Assembly: GCA_001899715.1 (NCBI GenBank)
Contig: MKWI01000003.1
Location: 1-64,000, forward strand
DNA from: Sphingobium sp. 66-54
Lineage (GTDB): Bacteria; Pseudomonadota; Alphaproteobacteria; Sphingomonadales; Sphingomonadaceae
DNA length: 64,000 nt
Direction of reading: 5' to 3'
This document shows, piece after piece, positions 50,066 through 64,000 of this stretch. The translations under genes and the position numbers were made by a program. The notes under the pieces were generated by a model. The model had not been told where the DNA came from and ran no database searches. It saw nothing but the letters and a program-made list of their open reading frames with translations. Numbering within the stretch: the first letter of the stretch is position 1; each line of letters opens with the position of its first letter.

Positions 50066-50875
50066 TCAATCCACTCGCACCCGCTCCGCCTCCCCGGCGC
50101 GTGCGACGTCGATGGTGCGGATCTGCCCGTGGTGCAGCCCGTAGATCACGAACACCCGCACCGCCACGGCTTCGCCCTTCTTCAGCGGCGTCACCGCGAA
50201 ATCCGGCGCATCCGCCTGCGCGACGAAGGTGCTGGTGCAATCCACCGCAATGCCGTGGTCGTCGATCATCAGCGCGTGAACGGTGAGATGCTCGCGCACG
50301 GACCGGAACATGCCCTCATAGAAGGACTGGATCGCCGCGCGCCCCCGCATCGGCGGCACGGAGGGGAGCCGCAGCGTGCAATCCTCAGTATAATAGCGCG
50401 CCGCCCGCGCGATATCGCCGGCGCTGAACGCCGCCGCATAGGCATGATAGGCCGCGCGCCCGCCGGCATGGCCGGAGAGCATCGGCGCCTTGATGACGCC
50501 CTGTTCAGCCGGCCAGGTCATCGAGCACAGCTCGCGGATCAGCCCCTGCTCGTCGAGTTCGTAGGTGACGAAGAAGCGGACGGTGAGGATGTCGCTCGGC
50601 ATCAGCGCGCCGAAAGGAAAGTCGGGCCGGGGCGCATGGCAGATGAAGTCCATATCGACATCCACGAACAGCCGGTTCTCCTGCTGCATTACCCGGCGCG
50701 GACGCACAATCTCGCGTACACCGTCATGCGCCCAGTCGAGGAAGGCGAGCAGTTCGTCCTGTCCCCGGCTGGTCCGGGTGGCGCCATACATGACGCAGTC
50801 CGGCGCGAACCAGCGCTCGACGAGGGCGGCGTCATCTCCCTCGTTAAACGCCTCGACATAGGCTTCGTAATCCAT
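50066..50875 (-). CDS. Fused double NTF2-like protein
   Basis: A 269-residue protein made of two NTF2-like cones. The first (residues 1-125) begins MDYEAYVEAFNEGDDAALVE and includes YGATRTSRGQDELLAFL. The second (about 135-265) begins AYHAYAAAFSAGDIARAARY, with MRGRAAIQSFYEGMFRSVRE, ADAPDFAVTPLKKGEAVAVR and LHHGQIRTIDVARAG. The second half shares its pattern (A-F-x-x-G-D, G-R-x-x-I-x-x-F-Y-x-G, x-P-D-F, F-x-x-Y, G-x-I/F-T-x-I-x-x-A-R) with the stand-alone proteins at 54917 and 58937. It follows the MarR gene by 16 bases. A decarboxylase or cyclase role is inferred from the family. Confidence 0.78.
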   Translation of the reverse strand: MDYEAYVEAFNEGDDAALVERWFAPDCVMYGATRTSRGQDELLAFLDWAHDGVREIVRPRRVMQQENRLFVDVDMDFICHAPRPDFPFGALMPSDILTVRFFVTYELDEQGLIRELCSMTWPAEQGVIKAPMLSGHAGGRAAYHAYAAAFSAGDIARAARYYTEDCTLRLPSVPPMRGRAAIQSFYEGMFRSVREHLTVHALMIDDHGIAVDCTSTFVAQADAPDFAVTPLKKGEAVAVRVFVIYGLHHGQIRTIDVARAGEAERVRVD

Positions 50876-50891
50876 CCCCGTCTCGTCTCCG

Positions 50892-51428
50892 TCAAGTTCC
50901 GCCAGCACGCTCGCTCGCGATCCGGTCGGCGTTGCGCGCCATGGTAAGCAGCAGCCGGTCGAGCGTCGCCACCTCCTCGGGCGTCAAGCCCGTCATCAGC
51001 GCGTCGAAAAAGGCGCGCCGATGCAGGTGCACCTGGTCGAACACCGTCTTACCGGCCGGGGTAAGGGTGAGCAGGCTGCTCTTGCGGTTGCGGGGATTAT
51101 TGGCGCGGCTCAAATAACCGCCCGCCTCCAGCGAGCGCACGGCGCGGCTCACCTCGGCTCGGTCCACCAGCGCGGCGCCGGACACTTCGCTCGCGCTTTT
51201 CGAGCCCATCACCGCGATATGGGCCAGCACCCGCCACTCGGCGAGCGACATGCCGGCGCGGTCTCGCACCTGCTGCACGGAGAGTCGATCGAGCATCTTG
51301 CCGAGCATCAGCACGCGGTAAGGCAAATGCCGCGCGTCGAAGATGCGCCACGCTTCCTCCAGCGGCCCGCGTTCCTGCCCCGTGTCCTCCCGTGTCACCG
51401 CCCCGTGCGGGCTCTCATCCCTTGCCAT
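50892..51428 (-). CDS. MarR-family transcriptional regulator
   Basis: A 178-residue MarR repressor. The dimer helices flank the winged helix with MSLAEWRVLAHIAVMGSKSA, the recognition helix ALVDRAEVSRAVRSLEAGG and the wing RANNPRNRKSSLLTLTPAGK. It lies between an aldehyde dehydrogenase and the fused NTF2-like gene on one strand, close to divergent GMC oxidoreductase genes, and probably represses this catabolic island until an aromatic ligand appears. Confidence 0.88.
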   Translation of the reverse strand: MARDESPHGAVTREDTGQERGPLEEAWRIFDARHLPYRVLMLGKMLDRLSVQQVRDRAGMSLAEWRVLAHIAVMGSKSASEVSGAALVDRAEVSRAVRSLEAGGYLSRANNPRNRKSSLLTLTPAGKTVFDQVHLHRRAFFDALMTGLTPEEVATLDRLLLTMARNADRIASERAGGT

Positions 51429-51456
51429 AGCCCTCTCCCCCTTTCGGTGCGGCGCC

Positions 51457-52968
51457 TCACAGAGCGACGCTGACCGCCTTCAATTCGGTATAGGCTTCGA
51501 TACCCGCCTTGCCGTTCTCGCGGCCCCAGCCCGACGCCTTGAAGCCGCCGAGCGGCAACGCCGGATCGACCCCGCCGGAGCCGTTGATGCGGATCGTCCC
51601 CGCCTTCAGGCGCCGCGCCAATTTGTGCGCGGTGCTGATATTGGAGGTGTAGATGGACGCGGAGAGGCCGAACTCCGTCTCATTGCCGCGCCCGGCGAGC
51701 GCGTCGATATCGGCATCGTCACCGAACCGCATGGCGCAGAGCACGGGACCGAAAATCTCCTCCTTACGCACCCGCATGTCGGGCTTGGTGTCGAGCAATA
51801 CCGTCGGCTGCACGAAATAACCGCCGTCATAACCCTCGCCGCTCAGCGCCTCGCCGCCGACCAGCACGCTCGCGCCCTGCGCGCGGCCGGAGGCGATATA
51901 GCCGGTCACGCGCTCGCGCTGCACGGCGCTCACCAGCGGGCCGATCATGGTGCTGGCATCGAGCGTCTGGCCGACCTTCATGCCCTTCGCCATGGCGACC
52001 ACGCCCTCCAGCACCGCATCAGCCACCGCCTCGTGCACAAACAGCCGCGAGCCGGCGGCGCAGACCTGCCCGGCGTTGAAGAAGATGCCCATCGCCGCCG
52101 CGGGAATCGCCTTGGAGAGATCGGCGTCGGCGAAGATGTAGGTCGGCGATTTGCCGCCCAGCTCAAGCTGCACGCGCTTGAAGTTGGTCTTGCTGGCCTC
52201 GATGATCGCCTTGCCAGTCACTGTCGATCCGGTGAAGGCGACCTTGTCGACATCGCGATGCGCCGCCAGTGCCGCGCCCGCCGTGCGGCCAAGGCCGGTC
52301 ACGATGTTCACCACGCCCTCGGGGAAACCGGCTTCCATCACCAGCTCGCCCAGCCGCAGCGTGCTGAGCGGCGTCTGCTCGGCGGGCTTGAGCACCACGG
52401 TGCAGCCCGCCGCCAGCGCCGGCGCCAGCTTGCCGACCGCCATCACCAGCGGGAAATTCCAAGGCACGATCTGCGCACACACGCCGATCGGCTCGCGCAG
52501 CACATAGCTGAGCCACTCGCCCGGCGCGCTGATCTCGGCCGTCTCGCCCATGATCTTGCTCGCCCAGCCGGCATTGTAGCGCAACTGGCTGACGGCGCCC
52601 TGCACGTCGAGCATGCGAGAGAACTGGATCGGCCGGCCCACGTCCAGCGTCTCCAGCAGCGCCAGCTCTTCGCCGTTCGCTTCGATCAACTCGGCCAGCT
52701 TGAGCAGCAGCCGTGTGCGCTCGTCCGGTTTCACCTTGGCCCACGGTCCCTCGAACGCCGCGCGCGCCGCCGCCACCGCGCGGTCGATATCCGTCTCGCC
52801 CGCGCTGGCGACATGGCCGATCAGCTTGCCGGTTGATGGATTGATCGTCTCGAACGTCTCGCCAGACGCCGCCTCCATCCATTCGCCGCCGATCAGCATC
52901 TTCGCGGTGCCGCCCGCATAGCGCAGTTGCAATTGGTCGAGCAGCCCCGGATTATAGGGAGCGTTCAT
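51457..52968 (-). CDS. NAD-dependent aldehyde dehydrogenase
   Basis: A 503-residue ALDH. It has WNFPLVMAVGKLAPALAAGC, FTGSTVTGKAIIEASKTNFK, the Glu in ELGGKSPTYIF and the catalytic Cys in FNAGQVCAAGSRLF near residue 305. GSGGVDPALPLGGFKASGWG precedes the C-terminal oligomer strand. This is the class that oxidises aromatic and betaine-type aldehydes. It is divergent from the first GMC oxidoreductase across 135 bases, as if it oxidises the aldehyde that enzyme makes. Confidence 0.92.
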   Translation of the reverse strand: MNAPYNPGLLDQLQLRYAGGTAKMLIGGEWMEAASGETFETINPSTGKLIGHVASAGETDIDRAVAAARAAFEGPWAKVKPDERTRLLLKLAELIEANGEELALLETLDVGRPIQFSRMLDVQGAVSQLRYNAGWASKIMGETAEISAPGEWLSYVLREPIGVCAQIVPWNFPLVMAVGKLAPALAAGCTVVLKPAEQTPLSTLRLGELVMEAGFPEGVVNIVTGLGRTAGAALAAHRDVDKVAFTGSTVTGKAIIEASKTNFKRVQLELGGKSPTYIFADADLSKAIPAAAMGIFFNAGQVCAAGSRLFVHEAVADAVLEGVVAMAKGMKVGQTLDASTMIGPLVSAVQRERVTGYIASGRAQGASVLVGGEALSGEGYDGGYFVQPTVLLDTKPDMRVRKEEIFGPVLCAMRFGDDADIDALAGRGNETEFGLSASIYTSNISTAHKLARRLKAGTIRINGSGGVDPALPLGGFKASGWGRENGKAGIEAYTELKAVSVAL

Positions 52969-53103
52969 GGCGGGGGCGTCCTTTCCTAGAGCCGAACCGT
53001 CCGCACGGCGCGGAGAGTTGTTGAATCATCACGATGTCCCCAATAACAGCAGGAAGGGACTCCCGCCAGCCGGGGGACGCGTGCAGCCATTGGGAGAGGA
53101 TCA

Positions 53104-54753
53104 CTGTCCAGCGCAACCTATGATTATGTGATCGTCGGCGCCGGTTCGGCAGGCGCCGTGCTGGCCGCGCGGCTGACCGAGGACCCGGCGACGCGCGTGC
53201 TGCTGCTCGAAGCGGGCGGCGGGGCGGACAGTTGGCTCATCCGCATGCCGCTCGGCTTCCTCAAGGCCTTGTTCCAGCCCAAATATACCTGGCCCTACTG
53301 GACCGAGCCCGAGCCGCACATGAACAACCGCAAGCTGATCCTGCCACGCGGCCGGCTGCTCGGCGGCTCCAGCTCGATCAACGGCATGGTGTTCATGCGC
53401 GGCCATAGCTCGGATTTCGACCGCTGGGCGCAGATGGGCTGCACGGGGTGGAGCTATGCCGATGTGCTCCCCTATTTCCGTAAGATGGAGAATAGCTGGC
53501 GCGGCGCATCCGCTCTGCACGGCGGCGACGGCCCGCTGAGCGTCAGTCCCAACGCCACCAAATGGCTGCTGCACGATGAATTGATGGCCGCCGCCAAGGC
53601 CGCCGGCTATCCGCTCACCGACGATATCCATGACGGCACCGAGGAAGGCGTCGGCAAGGTCGAGCTGACCATCGACCGCAACGGGCGGCGCGCCTCCACC
53701 TATGAGGCCTATCTCAAGCCGGCGATGGGCCGGCCCAACCTCACCGTCGTCATCAACGCCCTCACCCAGCGCGTGCTGACGGAGGGCAAGCGCGCCACCA
53801 GCGTCGAGTATCGCCATGAGGGCCAGCTCGTCACCGCGACCGCCAGCCGTGAAGTCATCCTCTCCGGAGGCACCTACAATTCGCCGCAACTGCTCATGCT
53901 CTCCGGCATCGGCCCGGCCGAGCATCTGCGCGAGATGGGCATCGACGTGGTGCACGACCTGCCCGGTGTCGGCCAGAACCTCTCCGAGCATCCCCGCGTG
54001 CCGGTGCTGTTCGAGGCGTCCAAACCCGTCACGTTCGTCAACGAACTTCGCTTCGACCGCGCGACCAAAAGCGTCATCCAATGGTATCTGTTCGGCACCG
54101 GCCCCTTCGCGCGGCAGGTGAACAGTGCCAACCCCGTGCTGCGCACCGATCCGCGCCTTGCCCAGCCGGATATCCAGCTCTGGTGCAACCCGGTGACGCT
54201 GGACGCGCACCTCTGGTTCCCCGGTATCAAGAAAGCGCCGCCGCACAAATTCACCGCGGACGTCATCCTGCTCCACCCGGAGAGCCGCGGGAAGGTGTTC
54301 CTCAAGTCGCCCCGCGCCGAGGACCATGTCGGCATCTTCCTCAACCTGTTCAGCGCGCCGGCGGATTTCGCCACCGCCCGCGCCGGTATTCGCATCGCAC
54401 GGACGATCTACCGGACACCACCGCAAGCCGACATCACCGGCGCGGAACTGTCCCCCGGCGAGCAGGCGCAGAGCGATGCGGCGCTGGACGAGCATGTCCG
54501 CGCCACCGCCGGCACGACCCAGCACCCGCTCGGCACCTGCCGCATGGGCGCAGGGCCGATGGCCGTGGTCGACCCGCAACTGCGCGTCATCGGCATGGAG
54601 GGGCTACGCGTCATCGACGCGTCGGTGATGCCGGATGAGACCGGCGGCAACATCAACGCCCCCACCATCATGATCGCCGAGCGCGCGGCGGATATCATCC
54701 GGGGCCGTGTCCTACCTGCAGATGACCTGCCAGCAAGGGATCATGCCGCGTGA
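53104..54753 (+). CDS. GMC-family FAD oxidoreductase (1), probable CTG start
   Basis: A protein of about 549 residues in the glucose-methanol-choline family. The FAD motif YVIVGAGSAGAVLAARLTED begins only seven residues into the frame, GRLLGGSSSINGMVFMRGH and GGTYNSPQLLMLSGIG are the two GMC signatures, and the C-terminal TQHPLGTCRMG carries the catalytic His. No ATG precedes the motif in frame; a CTG at 53104 sits four bases after GGGAGAGG, so CTG is the likeliest start. It is paralogous to the gene at 55301. It probably oxidises a primary alcohol on an aromatic compound. Confidence 0.88.
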   Translation: MSSATYDYVIVGAGSAGAVLAARLTEDPATRVLLLEAGGGADSWLIRMPLGFLKALFQPKYTWPYWTEPEPHMNNRKLILPRGRLLGGSSSINGMVFMRGHSSDFDRWAQMGCTGWSYADVLPYFRKMENSWRGASALHGGDGPLSVSPNATKWLLHDELMAAAKAAGYPLTDDIHDGTEEGVGKVELTIDRNGRRASTYEAYLKPAMGRPNLTVVINALTQRVLTEGKRATSVEYRHEGQLVTATASREVILSGGTYNSPQLLMLSGIGPAEHLREMGIDVVHDLPGVGQNLSEHPRVPVLFEASKPVTFVNELRFDRATKSVIQWYLFGTGPFARQVNSANPVLRTDPRLAQPDIQLWCNPVTLDAHLWFPGIKKAPPHKFTADVILLHPESRGKVFLKSPRAEDHVGIFLNLFSAPADFATARAGIRIARTIYRTPPQADITGAELSPGEQAQSDAALDEHVRATAGTTQHPLGTCRMGAGPMAVVDPQLRVIGMEGLRVIDASVMPDETGGNINAPTIMIAERAADIIRGRVLPADDLPARDHAA

Positions 54754-54766
54754 CCCACCCGTCCCC

Positions 54767-54866
54767 ACCGTTCGTCCTGAGTTTGTCGCAGGGGCGCGCT
54801 GAGCGAGACCGAAGCCATTCTCGCTCCGCTCCAACTCGGGCGTCGCCTTTGCTCAGCCCGAACGGG
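54767..54866. repeat. Inverted repeat of a second dispersed class
   Basis: ACCGTTCGTCCTGAG at the left and GCTCAGCCCGAACGGG at the right face each other across about 100 bases. The motif TTCGTCCTGAG-x-x-TGTCG is widespread in sphingomonad intergenic DNA. It separates the first GMC gene from the NTF2-like gene. Confidence 0.7.
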
Positions 54867-54916
54867 ATGAGAGGCTGCGAGCCTCCAAAAAGCACCGCCA
54901 ACCAGGAGAAAGCCGC

Positions 54917-55297
54917 ATGACCCGCGAGGATTTCGAGCGCTATATCGACGCCTTCAACCGCGACGATTTCGACGGCTTCTCAAGCTTCTACGCCGACAAC
55001 GTGGATTTCAACCTGGGCGACCGCAAACGCATCGTCGGGCGGCAGGGCATCGTCGATTTCTATCGCGGCGTGAAGGCGCATATCCACGAGGAGTTGCGGA
55101 TCATCGACCTGATCCTCGGCCCCACCGGCGCGGGCCTGCACGTCTATACCAAGTTCACCACGGTCGAGGATTGGCCGGATTTCGAGCTGTGGCCCACCAA
55201 GGCCGGCGATGTGCGCGAGATCGAGAGCATCATCCTCTACACCATCGCCAACGGCAAGTTCACTCACATCAAATCCGCCCGTTTCAAGGAACTCTGA
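54917..55297 (+). CDS. NTF2-like protein (PhcF/PhcG-like decarboxylase candidate, 1)
   Basis: A 126-residue single NTF2-like cone. Visible pattern: DFERYIDAFNRDDFDGFSSF, YADNVDFNLGDRKRIVGRQG, IVDFYRGVKAHIHEE, TTVEDWPDFELWPTKAGD and FTHIKSARFKEL. It is clearly paralogous to the protein at 58937. It ends four bases before the second GMC gene, so they are co-translated. In Sphingobium SYK-6, NTF2-fold proteins PhcF and PhcG decarboxylate phenylcoumaran acids made by GMC oxidases; this gene is in the matching place. The function is inferred. Confidence 0.82.
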   Translation: MTREDFERYIDAFNRDDFDGFSSFYADNVDFNLGDRKRIVGRQGIVDFYRGVKAHIHEELRIIDLILGPTGAGLHVYTKFTTVEDWPDFELWPTKAGDVREIESIILYTIANGKFTHIKSARFKEL

Positions 55298-55300
55298 CCC

Positions 55301-56932
55301 GTGCCAGCCGCCAGCGCCAATCCGGACTTCATCATTATCGGCTCCGGCTCGTCGGGCGGCGTCATCGCCGCGCGTCTCTCCGAAGATCCGAACGCCAAGA
55401 TACTGGTGCTGGAGGCCGGTCGGCGCGAGCGCAGCCTCCGCCTCGCCATGCCGATCCTCTTTCCGTTCGTCATGGCCGATCCCAAGTTCAACTGGGGCTA
55501 CATGGGTGAGCCGGAGCCGTTCGCCAACGGCCGGCAGATCCGCCAGCCGCGCGGCAAGGCGATCGGCGGCTCCTCCATGATTAACGGCATGCTCTACGCG
55601 CGCGGTCACCCACGCGACTATGACGAGTGGCGCCAGCTCGGCAATGAAGGCTGGAGCTACGATGATGTGCTCCCCTACTTCAAGAAATCGGAGAACCACT
55701 GGGGCGCGGCCGATCAGTGGCACGGCAAGGGCGGTCCGCTCAGTATCAAGCAGCAGCCCAAGGACAGCGACCTTTACCGGCGCTTCATCGCGGCGGTGGA
55801 AAAGCTCGGCTATCCCGAGCGCGACAGCTTTCACCGCGCCGAGCAGGAAGGCTGGGGGCCGCCACCGCTCTGCATCCATGAGGGCACGCGCGCCAGCACG
55901 GCGGCGCGCTTCCTCATCCCCGCGATGAGCCGCCCCAATCTCACCGTTGAGACCGGCGCGCTCGTCACCCGCATCGAGGTGGAGAACGGCCGCGCCGTCG
56001 CCGTCCATTATCGCGACCATGCCGGGCAGGACCGGCGCGTCACCGCCAACAACGAGATCATCGTCTCCGGCGGCGCCTATAATTCACCGCAGCTCCTGCA
56101 CCTCTCCGGCATCGGCCCGGCGGACGAACTGCGCGCGCTCGGGATCGAGCCGGTTCACGACCTCCCCGGTGTCGGCGCGAACCTGCAAGATCACCCCTCG
56201 GTCGCGATGGTGCTGCACGCCCTGCGCAACGTGACGCTCACCAACGCCCTGCGGCTGGACCGCGCCGCCCTCTCCGCGCTGCACTGGCTGCTCAATCGCG
56301 GCGGCATGATCGCCGACATGCCGGTGACGGCCAACGGCTTCATCAAGACCCGCCCCGAGCTGGAACGGCCGGACGCGCAATGCCTGTTCCAGCCAACCAT
56401 GATCGGCGCTCAGCTCTGGGCGCCCGGCTGGCGCAAGCCCAAGCCGGACGTGGTCGCCATGGCCTGCGTGCTGCTGCGGCCGGAGGGGCGTGGCTGGGTC
56501 AAGCTGCAGTCGGCCGATCCCGGGGATAAACCGCGCATCCTCTCCAACGTGCTCTCGACGGAGAACGACCGGGCCTTCTTCCGCCGCCTCATCCCGCAAC
56601 TGCGCGAGATCTTCGCCACCTCGCCGCTCGCTGATGTGCTTGGCGCGGAGGTGATGCCCGGCGCGGATGTGCGGACGCCGGACGAGATCGACGCATGGGT
56701 GCGCACCGCCTGCAACACGGCGCTGCACCCGGTCGGCACCTGCGCGATGGGCAAGGATGCGATGGCGGTGGTCGACGCGCGCCTGCGCGTCCACGGCCTG
56801 ACCGGCCTGCGCGTGGCCGATGCCTCCATCATGCCCCGCATCTGCGGCGGCAACACTAATGCCGCCTGCATCATGATCGGCGAGAAAGCGGCAGATATGG
56901 TGAAGCAGGACAACGGGCTGGCGATGGCTTAA
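55301..56932 (+). CDS. GMC-family FAD oxidoreductase (2)
   Basis: A 543-residue GMC oxidoreductase starting with GTG at 55301, four bases after the NTF2-like stop. It shows FIIIGSGSSGGVIAARLSED, GKAIGGSSMINGMLYARGH, GGAYNSPQLLHLSGIG and the catalytic LHPVGTCAMG, followed by DASIMPRICGGNTNAACIMI. It is paralogous along its whole length to the gene at 53104. Two GMC enzymes beside two NTF2-like proteins suggest that each pair serves one enantiomer of a chiral dimer. Confidence 0.92.
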   Translation: MPAASANPDFIIIGSGSSGGVIAARLSEDPNAKILVLEAGRRERSLRLAMPILFPFVMADPKFNWGYMGEPEPFANGRQIRQPRGKAIGGSSMINGMLYARGHPRDYDEWRQLGNEGWSYDDVLPYFKKSENHWGAADQWHGKGGPLSIKQQPKDSDLYRRFIAAVEKLGYPERDSFHRAEQEGWGPPPLCIHEGTRASTAARFLIPAMSRPNLTVETGALVTRIEVENGRAVAVHYRDHAGQDRRVTANNEIIVSGGAYNSPQLLHLSGIGPADELRALGIEPVHDLPGVGANLQDHPSVAMVLHALRNVTLTNALRLDRAALSALHWLLNRGGMIADMPVTANGFIKTRPELERPDAQCLFQPTMIGAQLWAPGWRKPKPDVVAMACVLLRPEGRGWVKLQSADPGDKPRILSNVLSTENDRAFFRRLIPQLREIFATSPLADVLGAEVMPGADVRTPDEIDAWVRTACNTALHPVGTCAMGKDAMAVVDARLRVHGLTGLRVADASIMPRICGGNTNAACIMIGEKAADMVKQDNGLAMA

Positions 56933-56960
56933 AGGGTCATCCCAACTCAAATACCCTCAC

Positions 56961-56985
56961 TGTGCTCCTGCGAAGGCACGAATAC
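56961..56985. repeat. Half copy of dispersed palindromic repeat, copy 7
   Basis: GTGCTCCTGCGAAGGCACGA matches the left arm of the element at 9012. It lies between the convergent GMC and gdx genes. Confidence 0.65.
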
Positions 56986-57036
56986 GGTTTTGCTTGGAAG
57001 GGGCGAGCCGATCGTCCTACTTCCCCATTCGCATCC

Positions 57037-57357
57037 CTATCCCGGCGACGCCTGCTTCATCAGCACCAGCCCCGCCACGATCAGCACCGCCGCCGCGATC
57101 CGCATCGCGCTTATCTGTTCGCCCAGCACCAGCCAGCCGACCAGAAACGCACCCACCGCGCCGATGCCGGTCCACACCATGTAGGCGGTGCCGAGCGGCA
57201 GGGTTTTCATCGCCAGTGTCAGCAGCCAGAAGCTGCCGATCATCGCAACGATCATGACGGAGGTAGGCCCAAACCGCGTGAACCCCTCGGACTGTTTCAT
57301 CGCGAAGGCCCAGACGACCTCCAGCAATCCCGCGACACCCAACATGATCCAGGCCAT
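57037..57357 (-). CDS. gdx: Guanidinium exporter (SMR family)
   Basis: A 106-residue small multidrug resistance protein with four membrane helices: MAWIMLGVAGLLEVVWAFAM, SVMIVAMIGSFWLLTLAMKT, AYMVWTGIGAVGAFLVGWLV and AAAVLIVAGLVLMKQ. The Glu in GLLEVVW (residue 13) is the proton/substrate residue, and the EVVWA plus K-x-x-x-GF/T pattern is that of SugE/Gdx proteins rather than EmrE-type drug pumps. It exports guanidinium in exchange for protons. It is preceded by a guanidine-II riboswitch; AAGGAGG lies six bases before the ATG. Confidence 0.92.
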   Translation of the reverse strand: MAWIMLGVAGLLEVVWAFAMKQSEGFTRFGPTSVMIVAMIGSFWLLTLAMKTLPLGTAYMVWTGIGAVGAFLVGWLVLGEQISAMRIAAAVLIVAGLVLMKQASPG

Positions 57358-57379
57358 GGCGGCCCTCCTTTCGAAAGAG

Positions 57380-57426
57380 CCGGGCCGTCCCGGATACATT
57401 GCCCACAGGGGTCGAGGTCGTCCTCG
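57380..57426 (-). promoter_or_regulatory. Guanidine-II (mini-ykkC) riboswitch
   Basis: Read on the minus strand there are two perfect hairpins: CGAGG-ACGA-CCTCG (57426-57413) and CCGGG-ACGG-CCCGG (57393-57380), joined by 19 bases. Two short G/C stems with ACGR tetraloops are the whole consensus of the guanidine-II riboswitch; the two loops dock on each other and each binds one guanidinium. The second hairpin ends nine bases before the AAGGAGG ribosome site of gdx. The CCTC of the first stem can pair with that site, which would explain translational control (inference). Confidence 0.9.
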
Positions 57427-57576
57427 CCGTCCCAGATAAGCGCCCGGCGCGGCCAGTCAATGCAGGGGTTCGTCCGCCACGCGCATATCCTTGTTGATTC
57501 CCCATCATCGCCATGATTGAGTAGCGCGAGAACCAGCCCCGGCCGTACCGGGTGCATCGCCGGGGGGATGCCGCTC

Positions 57577-58932
57577 ATGAACCAATTCGACGTCGAAGCC
57601 TTCATCGACCGCACACGCCTGGGCCGCACGCAGGTGATGGCGCTGTTCGTCTGCATCCTCATCTGCTTCATCGACGGGTTCGACATCTTCATGATAGGCA
57701 AGATCGCGCCGGCCATCGCGGAAGACTTCGGCGAGCCGACGCTGGCGATGACCTCCGTGTTCGTCGCCCAGCAGATCGGCCTCGCGGTCGGCGCCTTCAC
57801 CATCTCGCCGCTAGCGGATCGCTTCGGGCGGCGCACCATGCTGATCTTCTCCTGCTTCACCTTCGGCGTCATCACGCTGGCGAGCATCTACGTGCATAAT
57901 CTCACCCAGCTTGCGATCATGCGCGGCATCGCCGGCGTGTTCATGGCCGCCGGCCTGCCGATGGCGATGGCGCTCATCTCCGAGATCACGCCGCGCCACC
58001 GCCGCTCGACCATGGTGGCGATCGCGCTGGCCGGCTACTCGACCGGCAGTGCCGCCAGTGGCGCGGTGGCTGCCTGGCTGCTCGACATCTACGGATGGGA
58101 GAGCGGCTTCTGGATCGGCGGCATGGTGCCGCTCGTCTGCGTGCCGCTGCTTATCCTGTTCGTGCCCGAATCGCTCAAGTTCCGCGCCGAGCGCGACCCG
58201 GCCGACCCACGTATCGCCCGCACCGTCCGAAGGCTCGACCGCACGATAGAGCTGCGCGGCGACGAGTTGTTCGTGCTCAACGCAGCACAGGCAAAGGGCC
58301 GCAAGGCCAAGCTGCTCGACGTATTTTCGGAGGGGCGCGCATGGATGACGGGGCTGATCTGGGCCGCCTGCGCGCTCAGCATGACCAACATCGCGCTGAT
58401 GGGTTCATGGCTGCCCAGCTTCTTCCAGGAGATGGCCGGCATCCCCATCCAGGAGTTCGCCATCGTCGCGATGATCGGCTATCTCGGCGGCGTCGCCGGC
58501 ACGCTCTGCATCGGCTGGTTGATGGACCGTTTCCGCCCCGCGCTGCTTCTGGCCTTGTTCTATGTGCTGCTTGCCGTCGCGCTGGCCGCGCTGGCCTGGG
58601 TGCCGTTCCACACCGTCGGCTTCATCGTTGTCGCTATCCTCTGGAGCTTCTTCCAGACCGGCGGGCAAGGCGGCCTCAATACCATGATTACGCTCGTCTA
58701 TCCGCCGCGCATGCGCAGCACCGCACTGGGCTGGGCGGGCGGCGCGGGCCGTGTCGGCGGGATCATCGCGCCCACGGCGGGCACCTTCGCGCTGGCGCAG
58801 CATTTTTCGCTCCACCTGACGCTGGCGTTGGCCGCCATCCTGCCGCTGCTGGTCGCGGTGCTGATGCTCGTCTTTGCAGCCGGCAAGCACGACCTGAAGC
58901 TCTCCGCCGCCTCGCAGAACGGCGGCGGCTGA
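57577..58932 (+). CDS. MFS transporter, aromatic-acid:proton symporter type
   Basis: A 451-residue MFS carrier of the AAHS branch. Helix 1 reads FVCILICFIDGFDIFMIGKI, with the DGFD motif of PcaK-like aromatic-acid carriers; PLADRFGRRTM is motif A. A 50-residue central loop follows helix 6. I start at 57577, since the GGGGGG ribosome site abuts the ATG at 57568. It lies between the GMC genes and the second NTF2-like gene and probably imports the aromatic compound broken down by this island. Confidence 0.87.
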   Translation: MNQFDVEAFIDRTRLGRTQVMALFVCILICFIDGFDIFMIGKIAPAIAEDFGEPTLAMTSVFVAQQIGLAVGAFTISPLADRFGRRTMLIFSCFTFGVITLASIYVHNLTQLAIMRGIAGVFMAAGLPMAMALISEITPRHRRSTMVAIALAGYSTGSAASGAVAAWLLDIYGWESGFWIGGMVPLVCVPLLILFVPESLKFRAERDPADPRIARTVRRLDRTIELRGDELFVLNAAQAKGRKAKLLDVFSEGRAWMTGLIWAACALSMTNIALMGSWLPSFFQEMAGIPIQEFAIVAMIGYLGGVAGTLCIGWLMDRFRPALLLALFYVLLAVALAALAWVPFHTVGFIVVAILWSFFQTGGQGGLNTMITLVYPPRMRSTALGWAGGAGRVGGIIAPTAGTFALAQHFSLHLTLALAAILPLLVAVLMLVFAAGKHDLKLSAASQNGGG

Positions 58933-58936
58933 CCGC

Positions 58937-59329
58937 ATGGCGGCCATCTGCGACCGCCAATGGTTCGAGACCTATCTCGACGCCTTCAATCGCGGCGATT
59001 TCGATGGGTTCGGCGCTTATTATGCGGATGATGTCGCCTTCCACGGGCAGGCTGCCACCCTCCACGGCCGCGCGGCGGTGCTGGCTTTCTATCGCGGCGT
59101 CAGGACGCGGATCGGCGAGCGCGTCGATCTGCTGAGCTTCATCGGCAGTGAGGCCGCCGTTGCCGCCGAAATCCGCACCACCCTCATGCCGCTGGAGGAT
59201 TGGCCGGATTTCCCCACCGGCGCGCTCATCAAGGGCCAGCAACGGCAGAGCATCAACTTCGCCTTTTACGACATAGTGGACGGCCGTTTCACCCGCATCC
59301 GCTCCGCTCGCTTCCGGCGGATCATGTAG
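58937..59329 (+). CDS. NTF2-like protein (PhcF/PhcG-like decarboxylase candidate, 2)
   Basis: A 130-residue NTF2-like protein, paralogue of the one at 54917. Shared features are WFETYLDAFNRGDFDGFGAY, YADDVAFHGQAATLHGRAAV, LAFYRGVRTRIGERVD, MPLEDWPDFPTGALIKGQ and FTRIRSARFRRIM. It begins four bases after the MFS stop, so the two are one unit. Differences in the central residues (His and Gln in place of Asn and Leu) could give a different stereochemical preference. The reaction is inferred only from context. Confidence 0.82.
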   Translation: MAAICDRQWFETYLDAFNRGDFDGFGAYYADDVAFHGQAATLHGRAAVLAFYRGVRTRIGERVDLLSFIGSEAAVAAEIRTTLMPLEDWPDFPTGALIKGQQRQSINFAFYDIVDGRFTRIRSARFRRIM

Positions 59330-59424
59330 GCAACAAAAATGAGGAGGCCAGCGCTTGATAGCAGCCGGCACTCCCCCAGATCAGCCCCGCGACGCTCCCT
59401 CCGCGATCGCGAGACATCCCCCCA

Positions 59425-60879
59425 TCAGGCCGCTGCCCCCAGCGACACGCGATATTGCCCGCTTTGCAGCGTCTCCTCCGGCACCCACGTTCCATGGAAG
59501 GTCGCGCGCACGCGGATCGGCAGCTTGAGCAGCGCCACCGGCCCGGCCGCAACATTCTGCGCGTCGAGGATCGCCAGATCGCTGCGCATCTGCGAGACAC
59601 GCGAGACGGGCACCAGCAGCCAGCCATCGCCCTCCGGCGCATCGGGTCGGCGCGGAATGAACTGCGGCTCCTGCACGCCGTCGCCGGGGCCGGGGTTCCA
59701 GAGTTCAAGCGCGCCGGTCTGGTGATCGAACCGCCCGATCCCGCCCGAGCCATCCAGCCCGCGTGCGATCACATAGCCATAGCGATAAGGCCGGCCCAGA
59801 TAGCGGTCGTCCGTCCGCGGCATCTCGCACGGCATGCCGAGAAGCCGCTTCGTCTCGAACCCGTCCTCATTGCTCGCAAGATCGAAGGTCATGCGGGTCA
59901 GGAACGGCGGCACCGGCGCCGTTTCCTCGCCCTGCGGCGTGGTGAAGAAGGGGAAGCAATTGCCGTCATAATAACACACATCGAGGTGGATCTTGCTGCC
60001 CTCGCGATGCGCATTCATCATGTGCCCCGCGCTGCCCGCCGGCCCCTTGAACCAGCGGATATCCTCGGCCTTACCGTAGCGCGGTACCAACGCGACGTGG
60101 ACATTCTCCTCCGGATGCCACTGATAATAAGGCCCGCCCGCCTTCACCACATCGAGGTCGGTGATGAGCGGGAAGAACGGCACCACGATCCATTCGTCCG
60201 CAATCGCGAAATCGTGGACGCAAGCCGCATAGGGCATCTTGAACCACACCTCGTTGACGAGCTGCCGGTCCGGCCCGAACACGTAGAAGGCGAAGTCGAG
60301 GCTGGCGTCGCCCTTGGCCTGATAGGCAAAGGCGAGCAGTTCGTTGGTGATCGGGTCCACCTTGGGGTGCGCGGTGAAGGTCTCGGCCTTGATGAGCCCG
60401 TCGAAATCCACCCGCCCCAGCGTTTCCAGCGTATCGGGATCGACCTCATAGGGCAGGTCGTCCTCCTTGAGCGCGTAGAGATGCCCGGCGTGGAACATCG
60501 CCGTGGTGTTGGCCGTACCCAGATGCACGTCCTTCACGCTCGGGTCGACCGTGTAGCGGTTGCGATAGCGGCCGAACAGGCCGCGCCGCGCCGCCTTCTG
60601 GTGCTTGTAGCGATCGGTCTCCACCCACTTCACGACATAATCCACCTGGTTGTCCTTGAAGCGGAACATGTGGATCTGCCCCTCGCCGTCGATGAAGATA
60701 TCGTCGGTGCGGCCGGACGCATATTGGCGGTCGGCGCCCACGCGGTAGAGCGCGCCCTCCAGCCCATCGGGGATGGCGCCGGAGATCAGCTCCAGCCCCC
60801 GGATTTCGCTCTCGGTACGCATCGGCTCGCCCCAGCCGGTGTAAAGCTCGATTTCGGGAAAACGGACGGGTTCAACCAT
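59425..60879 (-). CDS. Lignostilbene-dioxygenase-like carotenoid oxygenase
   Basis: A 484-residue seven-bladed propeller oxygenase of the RPE65/CCD superfamily. Four iron His are visible: H171 (FTAHPKVD), H222 (ACVHDFAI), H286 (SAGHMMNA) and H462 (TFHGTW). Y105 (FGRYRNRYT) and K138 (ALKEDDLP) stand 33 residues apart, as do Tyr101 and Lys134 that anchor the substrate phenol in Sphingomonas LsdA, with the same +4 offset as the first two His. This is strong support for a lignostilbene alpha,beta-dioxygenase, which cuts a 4-hydroxystilbene into two aldehydes. It is convergent with the NTF2-like gene and followed by an esterase. Confidence 0.88.
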   Translation of the reverse strand: MVEPVRFPEIELYTGWGEPMRTESEIRGLELISGAIPDGLEGALYRVGADRQYASGRTDDIFIDGEGQIHMFRFKDNQVDYVVKWVETDRYKHQKAARRGLFGRYRNRYTVDPSVKDVHLGTANTTAMFHAGHLYALKEDDLPYEVDPDTLETLGRVDFDGLIKAETFTAHPKVDPITNELLAFAYQAKGDASLDFAFYVFGPDRQLVNEVWFKMPYAACVHDFAIADEWIVVPFFPLITDLDVVKAGGPYYQWHPEENVHVALVPRYGKAEDIRWFKGPAGSAGHMMNAHREGSKIHLDVCYYDGNCFPFFTTPQGEETAPVPPFLTRMTFDLASNEDGFETKRLLGMPCEMPRTDDRYLGRPYRYGYVIARGLDGSGGIGRFDHQTGALELWNPGPGDGVQEPQFIPRRPDAPEGDGWLLVPVSRVSQMRSDLAILDAQNVAAGPVALLKLPIRVRATFHGTWVPEETLQSGQYRVSLGAAA

Positions 60880-60912
60880 GATTTCAGTCTCCGACGAAAA
60901 TGGCGCGGCGTC

Positions 60913-61761
60913 TCAGACGGCCGCGATGAAGTCCCGGATGTGGCGTTCGAGGTCGCTGCCCGCGGTGCCGATCTCCAGCACCGGCGAGAGGTGATTATGC
61001 CCCCCCAGCCAGTGCAGGCGCGGAAACGCCTTGTGGGCAGCCGCATATTGGGCAGCGAGCGTGGCAGCTTGCATCTGGAAATCGGGCGGATCGAATTCCG
61101 AGACGGCGACGAGCAGCGGCACGTCGGTCGCCACCAGCCCCGCCATCGTGGAGGTGGCGGGGTAAGCGGCCGGATCGGCGCCGTAATAAGCCTGCTGGAA
61201 CTGGTTCGGCTCCGCGCTCGCGACATCGTAAATGCCCGAGACGAGCAACGCGCCAGCCGGGGCGGCGGAGAAGCGCACGACAGCCTCCGCGACATGCACA
61301 GCACCGGCCGACTGGCCCATGACGAAAATCCGCGCAGGGTCGCCGCCAAAGCGCGCGACATTCTCGCGCAGCCACGCCACGGCGGCGGCAACATCCTCGC
61401 CCCCCGCCGGCCACGGATGCGCGGGAGCGAGACGATAGGTCATCGTCACGCCGACAAAGCCGCTCTCCACCGCGAAACCGCCGATATTGTCGTAGAAAGG
61501 CGAGCCTTCGCTGGTCTTGTCGCCCATCACGAACCCGCCGCCATGGATGAACAGCAGCACCGGCGCGCCCTTGATGCCGTCGCGGGTGAACAGGTCCAGC
61601 CGGTGGCGCTCGTCCGGCCCATAGCGCTCGTCACGCGTCACCCGCGCACCGGCCGGCAGACCGGGCTGGAGCGCACCGAAAATCGCCTGTGTGCCGCCCA
61701 TCATGCCGGGCGTCAGCTCGGCGCCGAAATCCTTGATCTTCGCGCGTATCTCGGGGGTCAT
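60913..61761 (-). CDS. Alpha/beta hydrolase, hormone-sensitive-lipase-type esterase
   Basis: A 282-residue esterase. The oxyanion motif LLFIHGGGFVMGD is near residue 90, the nucleophile elbow FVMGQSAGAVHVA near 150, the Asp in LVAVSEFDPPDFQ and the His in WLGGHNHLSP. It has no signal peptide and is cytoplasmic. It overlaps the alcohol dehydrogenase by four bases (ATGA) and ends 33 bases before the dioxygenase gene starts. It could release phenolic acids or alcohols from esters; the substrate is unknown. Confidence 0.88.
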   Translation of the reverse strand: MTPEIRAKIKDFGAELTPGMMGGTQAIFGALQPGLPAGARVTRDERYGPDERHRLDLFTRDGIKGAPVLLFIHGGGFVMGDKTSEGSPFYDNIGGFAVESGFVGVTMTYRLAPAHPWPAGGEDVAAAVAWLRENVARFGGDPARIFVMGQSAGAVHVAEAVVRFSAAPAGALLVSGIYDVASAEPNQFQQAYYGADPAAYPATSTMAGLVATDVPLLVAVSEFDPPDFQMQAATLAAQYAAAHKAFPRLHWLGGHNHLSPVLEIGTAGSDLERHIRDFIAAV

Positions 61762-62855
61762 AGGTCGCTCACTTTCAGAACGGGCTTGATGACGGTGCCG
61801 GCCTCGCAATCGCGGAAGGCCCTGCCGATCTCGTCGAACGTGTAGGGCGTGATGAGCCGGTCAAACGGGAAGCGCCCTTGCCGCCAGTAAGCGATCAGCA
61901 TCGGCAGGAAGGTGCGCGGATTGGCGTCGCCCCCTAATATACCGCGCAACTGCCGGCCACCGGCCAGCATCGGGAACATCGCCGGCGCCCACTCGCCGCG
62001 CGGGGCAGCAACGAAACCGGCCGTGCCGTTCATGGCAAGGCACTCAAGCGCCACGGTATGCACCGCCGGCACGGTGGTGGTGTTGAAGCTGAAGGTCACG
62101 CCCCGCCCCGTCACCGCGCGGATCGCTTGTGCGAGGTCTGGCGTGTCCGCCGCAATCGCCTCGGTCGCGCCCAGCTCCAGCGCCAGATCGAGCCGCGCGC
62201 GGTTCAAATCCACCGCGACGATATGCTTCGCGCCGACCAGCCGCGCCGCCATCACCGCCGAGAGGCCGACGCCGCCGACACCGAGCACCACGATGCTGTC
62301 CCCCGCCTTCACCTTGAGCGCCTCGATCACCGCGCCCGCGCCGGTGATGACGCCGCAGCCCAGGGGCGCGAGCAGTTCCAGCGGCACGTCCTTGTCCACC
62401 TTCACCGCGGTGCGCTCGGGCACGATGGCGTGGGTGGCGAAGGAGGACTGGCCGAAGAAATGCGAGTGGATGGCCCCATCATCGCAGGAAAGCGCCGTCG
62501 ATCCATCGAGCCGCTTGCCGCCGAAGCTCAGCGGCATGGCGAGGTCGCAATAGGTCGGCCGGCCGGCGAGGCAGCTTGGGCATGTCCCGCATGAGCTACC
62601 CGAGAGGATTACATGGTCACCCACCGCGAAACCGCGCACGCCCGCGCCCACCGCCTCAACTACGCCGGCACCCTCATGGCCGAGCACGATCGGCTGCGGC
62701 GAATGGCGGCCGGGATGCTCGTGCAGGTCGGTATGGCAGATGCCGACGGCGACGATCCGCACCCGCATCTCGCCCGCGCGCGGCTCCTCCTGCTCAAGCT
62801 GCTCAAGGCGCGGCTCGGGCAGGCCCGGCCAGCTGACGGCGGCGGTGATCCGCAT
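61758..62855 (-). CDS. Zinc-dependent alcohol dehydrogenase, aryl-alcohol type
   Basis: A 365-residue medium-chain dehydrogenase. The catalytic zinc ligands are Cys in AVGICHTDLHEH, His in LGHEGAGVV and Cys in APLGCGVITGAG; the structural zinc set is SSCGTCPSCLAGRPTYC. The NAD motif is LGVGGVGLSAVMAARLVGA. It resembles benzyl/aryl-alcohol dehydrogenases of the XylB type. It starts inside the stop of the upstream NTF2-like gene. In this island it would oxidise a phenolic benzylic or allylic alcohol. Confidence 0.9.
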   Translation of the reverse strand: MRITAAVSWPGLPEPRLEQLEQEEPRAGEMRVRIVAVGICHTDLHEHPGRHSPQPIVLGHEGAGVVEAVGAGVRGFAVGDHVILSGSSCGTCPSCLAGRPTYCDLAMPLSFGGKRLDGSTALSCDDGAIHSHFFGQSSFATHAIVPERTAVKVDKDVPLELLAPLGCGVITGAGAVIEALKVKAGDSIVVLGVGGVGLSAVMAARLVGAKHIVAVDLNRARLDLALELGATEAIAADTPDLAQAIRAVTGRGVTFSFNTTTVPAVHTVALECLAMNGTAGFVAAPRGEWAPAMFPMLAGGRQLRGILGGDANPRTFLPMLIAYWRQGRFPFDRLITPYTFDEIGRAFRDCEAGTVIKPVLKVSDL

Positions 62856-63361
62856 CAGGGCTTGCCCGCGACCGGCGGCGCGCTGTGCGAGGGCTTGACC
62901 GGCAGACGGATCTCGCTCTTCCACGGCACCTGATCGGCCGCCGTCCAGGCGTTCACCAGCAGCGACTGGAAGCGCCACGGCCCTTCCTTGTTGGTCACAT
63001 GGTCGATCCGCGTGCCGATGCCGAAAATGAAATTGGTGTGATAATCGGTCTGAAACTGGACGATCTGGAAGAAGCAGCGCACGTCCACTTCGCCCTCTTC
63101 CTCGCGCGGCTCCATGATGAAATGGTTCATCATGTGCTGGCGGCCGTACCACCAATATTGACGGTCGTTCCACAGCGACCGGAGATTTTCGAGGATCGCC
63201 TCATGGCCCTGCACGCGGCCCTGCCAGAGATGGTCGAACCAGCAATCCTGCGTGAAGGTAGACATGGCAAGGTCGGCGTCCGCCAGGTCGATGCCCCAGG
63301 CATAGCGCGAATACAGCTCCTGAATCTCCAACCGGTCGAGCGCGCTCAGTTGCCATGCCAT
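62855..63361 (-). CDS. SnoaL/NTF2-like protein
   Basis: A 168-residue SnoaL-like protein: LSALDRLEIQELYSRYAWGI at the start, FTQDCWFDHLWQGRVQGHEA, RQHMMNHFIMEPREEEGEVD and FQTDYHTNFIFGIGTRIDHV. It resembles the dioxygenase-beta-subunit-like group of NTF2 proteins, which lack the iron-binding partner, and is related more to the protein at 12287 than to those at 54917 and 58937. It starts three bases after the aldehyde dehydrogenase stop and overlaps the alcohol dehydrogenase, so it belongs to that operon. Confidence 0.84.
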   Translation of the reverse strand: MAWQLSALDRLEIQELYSRYAWGIDLADADLAMSTFTQDCWFDHLWQGRVQGHEAILENLRSLWNDRQYWWYGRQHMMNHFIMEPREEEGEVDVRCFFQIVQFQTDYHTNFIFGIGTRIDHVTNKEGPWRFQSLLVNAWTAADQVPWKSEIRLPVKPSHSAPPVAGKP

Positions 63362-63363
63362 AT

Positions 63364-64000
63364 TCAGTTTCCTCCCGGTTTGCCTAGATGATGGTCGTTC
63401 TGGATGTCGGCCACTGCGCCATGCTGGGTCAGCAGCGCCTTGCGGCGCACATAGCGCAGGATCGCTTCCGGCCCGGTGCGCGCCCCGCCGCCGACGCCCG
63501 AGGCGCCGAACGCGTTGGAGCCGACCGTGCGGTTCTTGGCGAAAGTGAGGAACGTATCCTGCACAAATACCGACCCGGCATTGACCTGCCGCGCGATCGC
63601 CAGCCCCTCCGCCTCATCCCCCGCGATTACCGATGCGGTGAGTCCGAACTCGGTATCGTTGGCGAGCGCGATTGCCTCCTCCACGGTGCGGAACGGCATC
63701 ACCGGCAGCATCGGGCCGAACGTCTCATCCCGCATGATCGTCATGGCGTGGTTGACGCCCGTCAGCACGGTCGGCCGCATGTAGAGGCCGCCGCCAATCT
63801 CCTCCACCTTGCCGCCGGTCAGCACCGTGGCGCCCTTCGCCACCGCGTCGGCGATGTGCGCCTCCACGATCTTCGCCTGCGGGGCGAAAGTGAATGGGTG
63901 GAGATGCCCGGCGCGCGGATCGTCGCTGTTGAGCCGTACCTTTTGCGCCTTCTCGACCAGCATCGCCACAAAGGCGTCGTGGATCGCCTCGGCGACATAG
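63364..64000 (-). CDS. Aldehyde dehydrogenase, C-terminal part (cut by window end)
   Basis: The last 211 codons of an ALDH; the frame is open to the window edge. It includes YMRPTVLTGVNHAMTIMRDE and TFGPMLPVMPF (the conserved E-x-F-G-P motif), ALANDTEFGLTASVIAGD, and ends in a C-terminal GAVADIQNDHHLGKPGGN. NAFGASGVGGGARTGPEA replaces the usual G-G-x-x-x-S-G-x-G-R. The catalytic Cys lies beyond the window. It resembles coniferyl/vanillin-type aldehyde dehydrogenases and is the first gene of the operon leading to the lignostilbene-type dioxygenase. Confidence 0.9.
   Translation of the reverse strand, partial: YVAEAIHDAFVAMLVEKAQKVRLNSDDPRAGHLHPFTFAPQAKIVEAHIADAVAKGATVLTGGKVEEIGGGLYMRPTVLTGVNHAMTIMRDETFGPMLPVMPFRTVEEAIALANDTEFGLTASVIAGDEAEGLAIARQVNAGSVFVQDTFLTFAKNRTVGSNAFGASGVGGGARTGPEAILRYVRRKALLTQHGAVADIQNDHHLGKPGGN

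What the first reader, a model, noticed from the sequence alone, without database searches (positions are those of the whole stretch)
50066..64000. A compact candidate phenylcoumaran (beta-5) lignin-dimer catabolic island
Within 14 kb there are two paralogous GMC oxidoreductases (53104, 55301), two paralogous small NTF2-like proteins (54917, 58937) plus a fused double one (50066), a lignostilbene-dioxygenase-like enzyme (59425), two aldehyde dehydrogenases, an aryl-alcohol-type dehydrogenase, an aromatic-acid MFS carrier and a MarR regulator. In Sphingobium SYK-6 the dehydrodiconiferyl alcohol route uses paired GMC enzymes (PhcC, PhcD), paired enantiospecific NTF2-fold decarboxylases (PhcF, PhcG) and a lignostilbene dioxygenase. 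Having these functions together in one island, with the GMC and NTF2 genes duplicated in step, fits one pair per enantiomer. The substrate is inferred; another chiral aryl dimer is possible.
Basis: partly seen in the sequence, partly recalled or inferred. Interest (0 to 1): 0.85.

Follow-up and report, generated by a model that had tools for sequence, protein, structure and literature searches.

The report
Known lignin-dimer gene cluster, new species
This stretch is another species' copy of a gene cluster already known from a related lignin-eating bacterium that breaks down one kind of lignin dimer; the guess about the pathway is right, but the small proteins taken for the decarboxylases are something else whose job is not established.

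Summary
The genes are real. The island is the orthologue of the phc (dehydrodiconiferyl alcohol) cluster of Sphingobium sp. SYK-6: 17 of 18 genes in the same order, 67-88% identical. GMC1 is 88% identical to PhcD, GMC2 84% to PhcC, the dioxygenase 82% to LsdB/LSD7. PhcF/PhcG are DUF3237 proteins, not NTF2-fold proteins. Their orthologues (88%, 87%) lie 2.6-3.6 kb beyond the window. The island's dioxygenase is of the type that prefers lignostilbene in SYK-6. The likelier cleaver of the beta-5 stilbene, LsdD (89%), lies on another contig near the FerD and LigW2 orthologues. What stays open is the NTF2-like paralogues. One lies within 300 bp of 17 of 26 PhcD-like genes and 14 of 31 PhcG-like copies, but of 0 of 33 more distant GMC genes. 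Among 397 family genomes, 28 of 31 with PhcD or PhcG have one, against 7 of 366 without. They are not LdpA-like by BLASTP and lack the isomerase base; I found no assigned role. New member of a known kind.

The parts
50066..50908 (-). fused double NTF2/SnoaL-like protein, orthologue of the SYK-6 gene counted as SLG_09530 (78% id)
   Evidence: Pfam SnoaL_2, 2 stretches; synteny
50892..51428 (-). MarR regulator (70% id to SYK-6)
51457..52968 (-). aldehyde dehydrogenase (86% id to SYK-6), divergent from phcD
53104..54753 (+). PhcD orthologue, GMC oxidoreductase, 88% id to SLG_09500; probable CTG start at 53104
54917..55297 (+). NTF2a: small NTF2-like companion between phcD and phcC, 74% id to the SYK-6 gene counted as SLG_09490; function unknown
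55301..56932 (+). PhcC orthologue, GMC oxidoreductase, 84% id to SLG_09480; starts 3 bp after NTF2a
57517..58932 (+). MFS transporter (73% id to SYK-6); the ORF opens with TTG at 57517, in-frame ATG codons lie at 57568 and 57577
58937..59329 (+). NTF2b: small NTF2-like protein, 80% id to the SYK-6 gene counted as SLG_09450; 4 bp after the MFS gene
59425..60879 (-). LsdB/LSD7-type lignostilbene dioxygenase, 82% id to SLG_09440; 4 His, Tyr101 and Lys134 kept, Phe59 to Ile, Ser283 to Gly
60913..61809 (-). alpha/beta hydrolase (75% id to SYK-6)
61758..62867 (-). zinc alcohol dehydrogenase (80% id to SYK-6)
62855..63361 (-). SnoaL_4-type NTF2-superfamily protein (84% id to SYK-6)
63364..64000 (-). 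aldehyde dehydrogenase (82% id to SYK-6), continues to C3:64869 outside the window. Beyond it: fused double MarR C3:64960-66027, NTF2c C3:66140-66541, PhcG C3:66566-67057, PhcF C3:67138-67626

Best explanation
[quoted passage not shown] Steps, taken from the SYK-6 literature: the side chain of DCA is oxidised to DCA-C by promiscuous dehydrogenases. PhcD (53104) and PhcC (55301) stereoselectively oxidise the gamma-alcohol to aldehyde and acid (DCA-CC), perhaps helped by the adjacent aldehyde dehydrogenases (my inference). PhcG and PhcF (DUF3237 proteins at C3:66566-67626, outside the window) decarboxylate and open the ring to give the stilbene DCA-S. LsdD (another contig) cleaves it to vanillin and 5-formylferulate, and FerD and LigW2 lead to ferulate. 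Shown here: orthology, synteny and presence of these genes. Inferred: activities and stereochemistry. The NTF2-like companions are most likely small acid-base enzymes or binding proteins acting on the reactive aldehyde/acid intermediates of the steps they sit beside; this is inference only.
For: Same gene order as SYK-6 for 17 of the 18 genes from the double SnoaL gene to phcF, 67-88% identity; the 18th, the small transporter gene SMR, had no match at E<=1e-8 in the 40 kb compared. Two numbering anchors agree: phcF to lsdB is nine genes (SLG_09360-09440), and phcC/phcD fall on 09480/09500. G144 identified as SYK-6: its LSD4 is identical to PDB 6XM6 over 488 residues, it has 8 dioxygenases as published, and its chromosome is 4,199,332 bases. 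Cross-paralogue identity is only 46-47% for GMC1/GMC2, so C and D are told apart. DUFa/DUFb are DUF3237, the family named for PinX, which is 42/38% identical to PhcG/PhcF. Downstream: LsdD 89%, and genes 89% and 82% identical to those at the SYK-6 ferD and ligW2 positions, with the expected aldehyde dehydrogenase and amidohydrolase domains.
Against: No activity or stereospecificity was or could be tested. The island's own dioxygenase is the LSD7 type, whose SYK-6 orthologue prefers lignostilbene and has relatively poor DCA-S activity. The accounts of the pathway that I read give no role to the alpha/beta hydrolase, zinc ADH, SnoaL4, double SnoaL, NTF2a or NTF2b genes, so the cluster may serve more than DCA, or other dimers too.
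Confidence: 0.9

Rival explanations
1. One reading: the NTF2-like proteins at 54917 and 58937 are the PhcF/PhcG decarboxylases, one GMC/NTF2 pair per enantiomer.
For: They are paralogues (40% id), lie beside the GMC genes and are kept in the cluster. PhcH is reported to take some part in the decarboxylation and may be NTF2c (inferred from numbering only).
Against: The SYK-6 phcF/phcG positions (SLG_09360/09370) hold DUF3237 genes. In the self-BLAST the DUF3237 proteins matched only each other at E<=1e-3, not the NTF2-like ones. The orthologues of 54917 and 58937 are counted as SLG_09490 and 09450, not 09360/09370.
Confidence: 0.04
2. The island has the phc core but serves another chiral aryl dimer (for instance a beta-beta or beta-1 compound), with DCA a side substrate.
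For: LSD7-type dioxygenase prefers lignostilbene; several extra conserved genes without a role in the published DCA route; PinY/PinX show the same GMC plus DUF3237 chemistry on lariciresinol.
Against: 84-88% identity to PhcC, PhcD, PhcF and PhcG with kept synteny; LsdD, FerD and LigW2 orthologues present.
Confidence: 0.1
3. The NTF2-like genes are gamma-formaldehyde lyases of the LdpA/PcfL kind giving a parallel, deformylating route to the stilbene.
For: LdpA and PcfL are NTF2-family stilbene-forming enzymes, and the genes sit at the right place.
Against: No BLASTP match at E<=1 between NTF2a, b or c and the SYK-6 protein taken as LdpA; the PDB search with the NTF2a/b profile finds polyketide-cyclase-like and ketosteroid isomerase chains at E<=0.01, not the four chains that this LdpA matches. 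PcfL itself was not compared.
Confidence: 0.1

Closest known systems
phc gene cluster of Sphingobium (Parasphingobium) lignivorans SYK-6 (phcC, phcD, phcF, phcG, lsdB)
   Same: gene content, order and orientation for 17 of 18 genes; 67-88% protein identity
   Different: a small multidrug-resistance-type transporter gene in place of a DUF305 gene between phcC and the MFS gene
Pinoresinol pathway of Novosphingobium rhizosphaerae LY (PinY, PinX, PinU)
   Same: GMC oxidase, then DUF3237 decarboxylase, then stilbene-type dioxygenase
   Different: substrate is a beta-beta lignan; PinY is 39% identical to PhcC as published; PinVW were not sought here
PcfL route of Novosphingobium aromaticivorans
   Same: beta-5 dimer to the same stilbene, then LsdD, FerD and LigW
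   Different: one deformylating NTF2-family enzyme replaces PhcC, D, F and G

Membership tests
SYK-6 type PhcC/PhcD | GMC oxidoreductase, orthologous to SLG_09480/SLG_09500 | tested here: met
   84% and 88% identity, synteny
SYK-6 type PhcC/PhcD | enantioselective oxidation of DCA-C, coupled to respiration | not testable with these tools
   needs enzyme assay
PhcF/PhcG decarboxylases (NTF2-like genes at 54917, 58937) | DUF3237 domain, orthology to SLG_09360/09370 | tested here: not met
   Pfam hits are SnoaL/NTF2/DUF4440 only; map to other SYK-6 genes
PhcF/PhcG decarboxylases (C3:66566-67626) | DUF3237 domain, orthology to SLG_09360/09370 | tested here: met
   PF11578 in both; 87% and 88% identity
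PhcF/PhcG decarboxylases (C3:66566-67626) | stereospecific decarboxylation of DCA-CC | not testable with these tools
   needs enzyme assay
Lignostilbene dioxygenase | four histidines shared by all six sequences aligned, Tyr101, Lys134 | tested here: met
   all kept; Phe59, named with them in PMC8191317, is Ile here and in LSD7
LSD1-LSD4 clade (includes LsdD, the DCA-S cleaver) | at least 57% identity within the clade (PMC8191317) | tested here: not met
   41% to LSD4, 82% to LSD7
LdpA/PcfL gamma-formaldehyde lyase (NTF2a/b/c) | sequence similarity to LdpA | tested here: not met
   no BLASTP match to the SYK-6 protein taken as LdpA at E<=1; PcfL not tested
Ketosteroid isomerase (NTF2a/b) | oxyanion Tyr14 and general base Asp38 (roles and numbering recalled) | tested here: inconclusive
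   invariant Tyr9 aligns with chain residue 14; by ungapped extension residue 38 falls on Leu33, so the base seems missing; NTF2b has a gap near there

The most novel reading that the evidence does not exclude
The small NTF2-like proteins are unrecognised working parts of the phc pathway: NTF2a acts with the PhcC/PhcD oxidation step and NTF2b/NTF2c with the PhcF/PhcG decarboxylation step, for example as stereochemical editing or ring-opening acid-base enzymes on the gamma-aldehyde or acid, using the shared Tyr9 and DWPDF motif. An NTF2-like gene stays within 12 bp of phcD even in genomes where phcG lies on another contig or over 1 Mb away (G306, G199, G147, G102).
Probability: 0.35. Interest if true: 0.55.

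Novelty: new member of a known kind. Interest (0 to 1): 0.3.

Why it matters
It adds a complete phc cluster from another species of the SYK-6 genus and corrects which proteins are the decarboxylases. More useful, it shows that the published four-enzyme step (PhcC, D, F, G) tends to travel with small NTF2-like proteins for which I found no role in the papers held, beside the right subfamily of oxidases and not beside more distant relatives. That makes a simple gene-deletion question for lignin-dimer catabolism and for building this route in a production host.

Tried and rejected
Rejected: NTF2-like proteins as PhcF/PhcG; NTF2a/b/c as LdpA relatives by BLASTP; the island dioxygenase as the main cleaver of the beta-5 stilbene.

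Led nowhere: structure prediction of the NTF2 family (switched off); fetching the two primary SYK-6 papers on PhcC/D and PhcF/G and the LsdD paper (not held); a literature search for SLG_09490, 09450, 09380, 09530, 09410 and 09510 (no paper); searches that might name the family of PhcH (no answer). The plasmid collection held only DUF3237 relatives up to 65% and one NTF2a relative at 42%. NCBIfam gave no match over its cut-off for the proteins sent (10 of the island's proteins).

Limits of the counts: each searched 397 genomes; the handles shown agree, but most of the genomes without a match are not listed, so that the sets are the same is an assumption. The NTF2 hits rest on one query (NTF2c) at E<=1e-14; the GMC search scored only three candidates per genome; contig ends can hide neighbours; genomes are related, so the Fisher values are inflated. 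Against the companion reading: 9 of 26 PhcD-like genes and 17 of 31 PhcG-like copies have no NTF2 hit within 300 bp. In one search, 11 of 32 regions showed no NTF2-like gene. Ten of these hold a PhcG-like copy under 73% identity; the eleventh (G117, 83%) is on a 17-kb contig of which 12.4 kb was fetched. One of the ten (G318, contig C24) does have NTF2 hits 7.4 kb away, outside the stretch fetched.

Full report
What is there. The window is bases 1-64000 of contig C3 of a 4.0 Mb sphingomonad genome. The right-hand aldehyde dehydrogenase is cut by the window edge. I fetched the following bases. The island goes on: a fused double MarR regulator (C3:64960-66027), a third small NTF2-like protein (NTF2c, C3:66140-66541) and two DUF3237 genes (C3:66566-67057 and 67138-67626), before a TonB-dependent receptor.

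What the decarboxylases are. A 2025 paper on pinoresinol catabolism (PMC12607616; abstract and sections 7 and 8 read) says that PinX contains a DUF3237 domain and is 42% and 38% identical to PhcG and PhcF. A 2026 review (PMC12997858; abstract and sections 3, 5, 6 and 8 read) gives locus tags: phcF SLG_09360, phcG SLG_09370, lsdB SLG_09440, phcC SLG_09480, phcD SLG_09500. The own genome has five DUF3237 matches; two of them form the tandem just outside the window.

Finding the reference cluster. A DUF3237 search of 397 family genomes hit 100 at E<=1e-10, the best beyond the own genome at 87-89% identity. One of these, G144, I identify as SYK-6: its chromosome contig is 4,199,332 bases (that this is the SYK-6 length is recalled), it has eight dioxygenases as published (PMC8191317, passages), and its LSD4 protein is identical to PDB 6XM6 over all 488 residues aligned (the paper names 6XMA, listed there with the same sequence, as SYK-6 LSD4). 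In G144 the island is present with the same order: 17 of 18 genes, 67-88% identical; the transporter gene at 57037 had no match at E<=1e-8. Counting genes from phcF reaches the dioxygenase at 09440 and the two GMC genes at 09480 and 09500, with an extra DUF305 gene as 09470. Both anchors agree with the published tags. So DUFb = PhcF (88%), DUFa = PhcG (87%), GMC2 = PhcC (84%), GMC1 = PhcD (88%), dioxygenase = LsdB/LSD7 (82%). NTF2a, b and c correspond to the genes counted as 09490, 09450 and 09380. That PhcH is 09380 is only inferred from its letter and from the statement that phcFGH lie within about 5 kb of lsd7.

How it most likely works. From the literature: DCA-C is oxidised stereoselectively by PhcC or PhcD, DCA-CC is decarboxylated by PhcG or PhcF to the stilbene, which a dioxygenase cleaves; FerD and LigW/LigW2 lead to ferulate. 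The island's dioxygenase keeps four histidines common to all six dioxygenases aligned, Tyr101 and Lys134, but has Ile for Phe59 and Gly for Ser283, like LSD7. It is 41% identical to LSD4, outside the LSD1-LSD4 clade (at least 57% within). LSD7 lysates prefer lignostilbene over DCA-S and the paper calls its DCA-S activity relatively poor. The LsdD orthologue (89%) is on contig C16, in the same order as in SYK-6 with genes 89% and 82% identical to those counted there as ferD (SLG_12800) and ligW2 (SLG_12810). Their Pfam domains are aldehyde dehydrogenase and amidohydrolase, as expected. A protein 88% identical to the one taken as LdpA (beside a short-chain dehydrogenase, SnoaL_4 domain) is present too. 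The genome thus encodes the SYK-6 DCA enzymes from PhcC/PhcD to LigW2. I tested no activity.

The NTF2-like companions. Three small paralogues (40-46% identical) and one fused double protein lie in the island. In 397 family genomes, counted by script: PhcD-like genes of at least 60% identity number 26, and 17 have an NTF2-like hit within 300 bp (18 within 5 kb). More distant GMC genes of 50-56% identity number 33, and 0 have one within 300 bp (3 within 5 kb, all three on a contig that also holds a PhcD-like gene within 12 kb). PhcG-like copies of at least 60% number 31 in 26 genomes, and 14 have one within 300 bp (17 within 5 kb). By genome, 28 of 31 with PhcD or PhcG have an NTF2 hit, against 7 of 366 without; relatedness of genomes inflates the p-value. 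In several loci the oxidase block (aldehyde dehydrogenase, phcD, NTF2a, phcC) stands without phcF/phcG in the 20 kb fetched (L014, L016, L017). In others NTF2b or NTF2c stands beside phcG without phcC/phcD in the stretch (L062, L066, L067). So each step appears to keep its own companion; not every genome shows this (see Tried and rejected). In 40 of the 41 NTF2a/b/c sequences (those at 48% identity or more to their window relative), Y9, N14, D17, E58, T78, D85, W86, F89 and Y108 are among the invariant positions; P87 and D88 are kept in 38 of 40. The one row left out is a 32% NTF2b relative; 14 rows of the double protein were not aligned. The profile of 15 sequences matches polyketide-cyclase-like and ketosteroid isomerase chains. 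Tyr9 aligns with isomerase residue 14, but residue 38, its base, falls on Leu33 (roles and numbering recalled). No BLASTP match to LdpA was seen at E<=1. Differences from SYK-6 by codon position are 27/15/42 for NTF2a, 11/6/39 for NTF2c and 14/9/44 for PhcG, so the proteins look constrained, NTF2a the least.

Known or new. The cluster is known from SYK-6. A 2024 paper (PMC11323797; [quoted passage not shown] This is a further member. I found no paper naming the NTF2-like loci (six tags searched), but the primary SYK-6 papers are not held, so I cannot say the companions are unreported. The review states that SYK-6 has 62 NTF2-superfamily homologues and expects further lignin-associated pathways to await characterisation.

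Noticed in passing
53104 (window); corresponding place in SYK-6 (G144), G391, L010, L011: phcD seems to start at a CTG codon: in the window no ATG/GTG/TTG lies between the upstream stop and an internal GTG at 53128, and four relatives also have CTG at the corresponding place, while L013 has TTG and G300 an ATG a little upstream. In SYK-6 and G391 an in-frame GTG also lies 15 codons upstream, so CTG is not proven there. Seven of 14 sources looked at held the search motif.
   Followed up: partly
C3:64960-66027 (beyond the window): A single polypeptide with two MarR domains lies divergent from NTF2c-phcG-phcF; it is kept in SYK-6 at 67% identity.
   Followed up: no
57037-57399: A small multidrug-resistance-type transporter gene lies opposite to and between phcC and the MFS gene; SYK-6 has a DUF305 gene in that interval instead.
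   Followed up: no
G000:C16:134784-135347: A further DUF3237 gene lies next to the LsdD orthologue, as in SYK-6 (82% identical), suggesting another decarboxylase tied to stilbene cleavage.
   Followed up: partly
C3:67935-70832 (L025:7935-10832): A TonB-dependent receptor beside phcF is 76% identical to one near phcF in SYK-6, and relatives (48-62%) lie in the stretches around phcG in some other genomes; a possible uptake receptor for the dimer.
   Followed up: no
C3:71189-72772 (L025:11189-12772): A protein of the animal haem peroxidase family is encoded just past the island.
   Followed up: no
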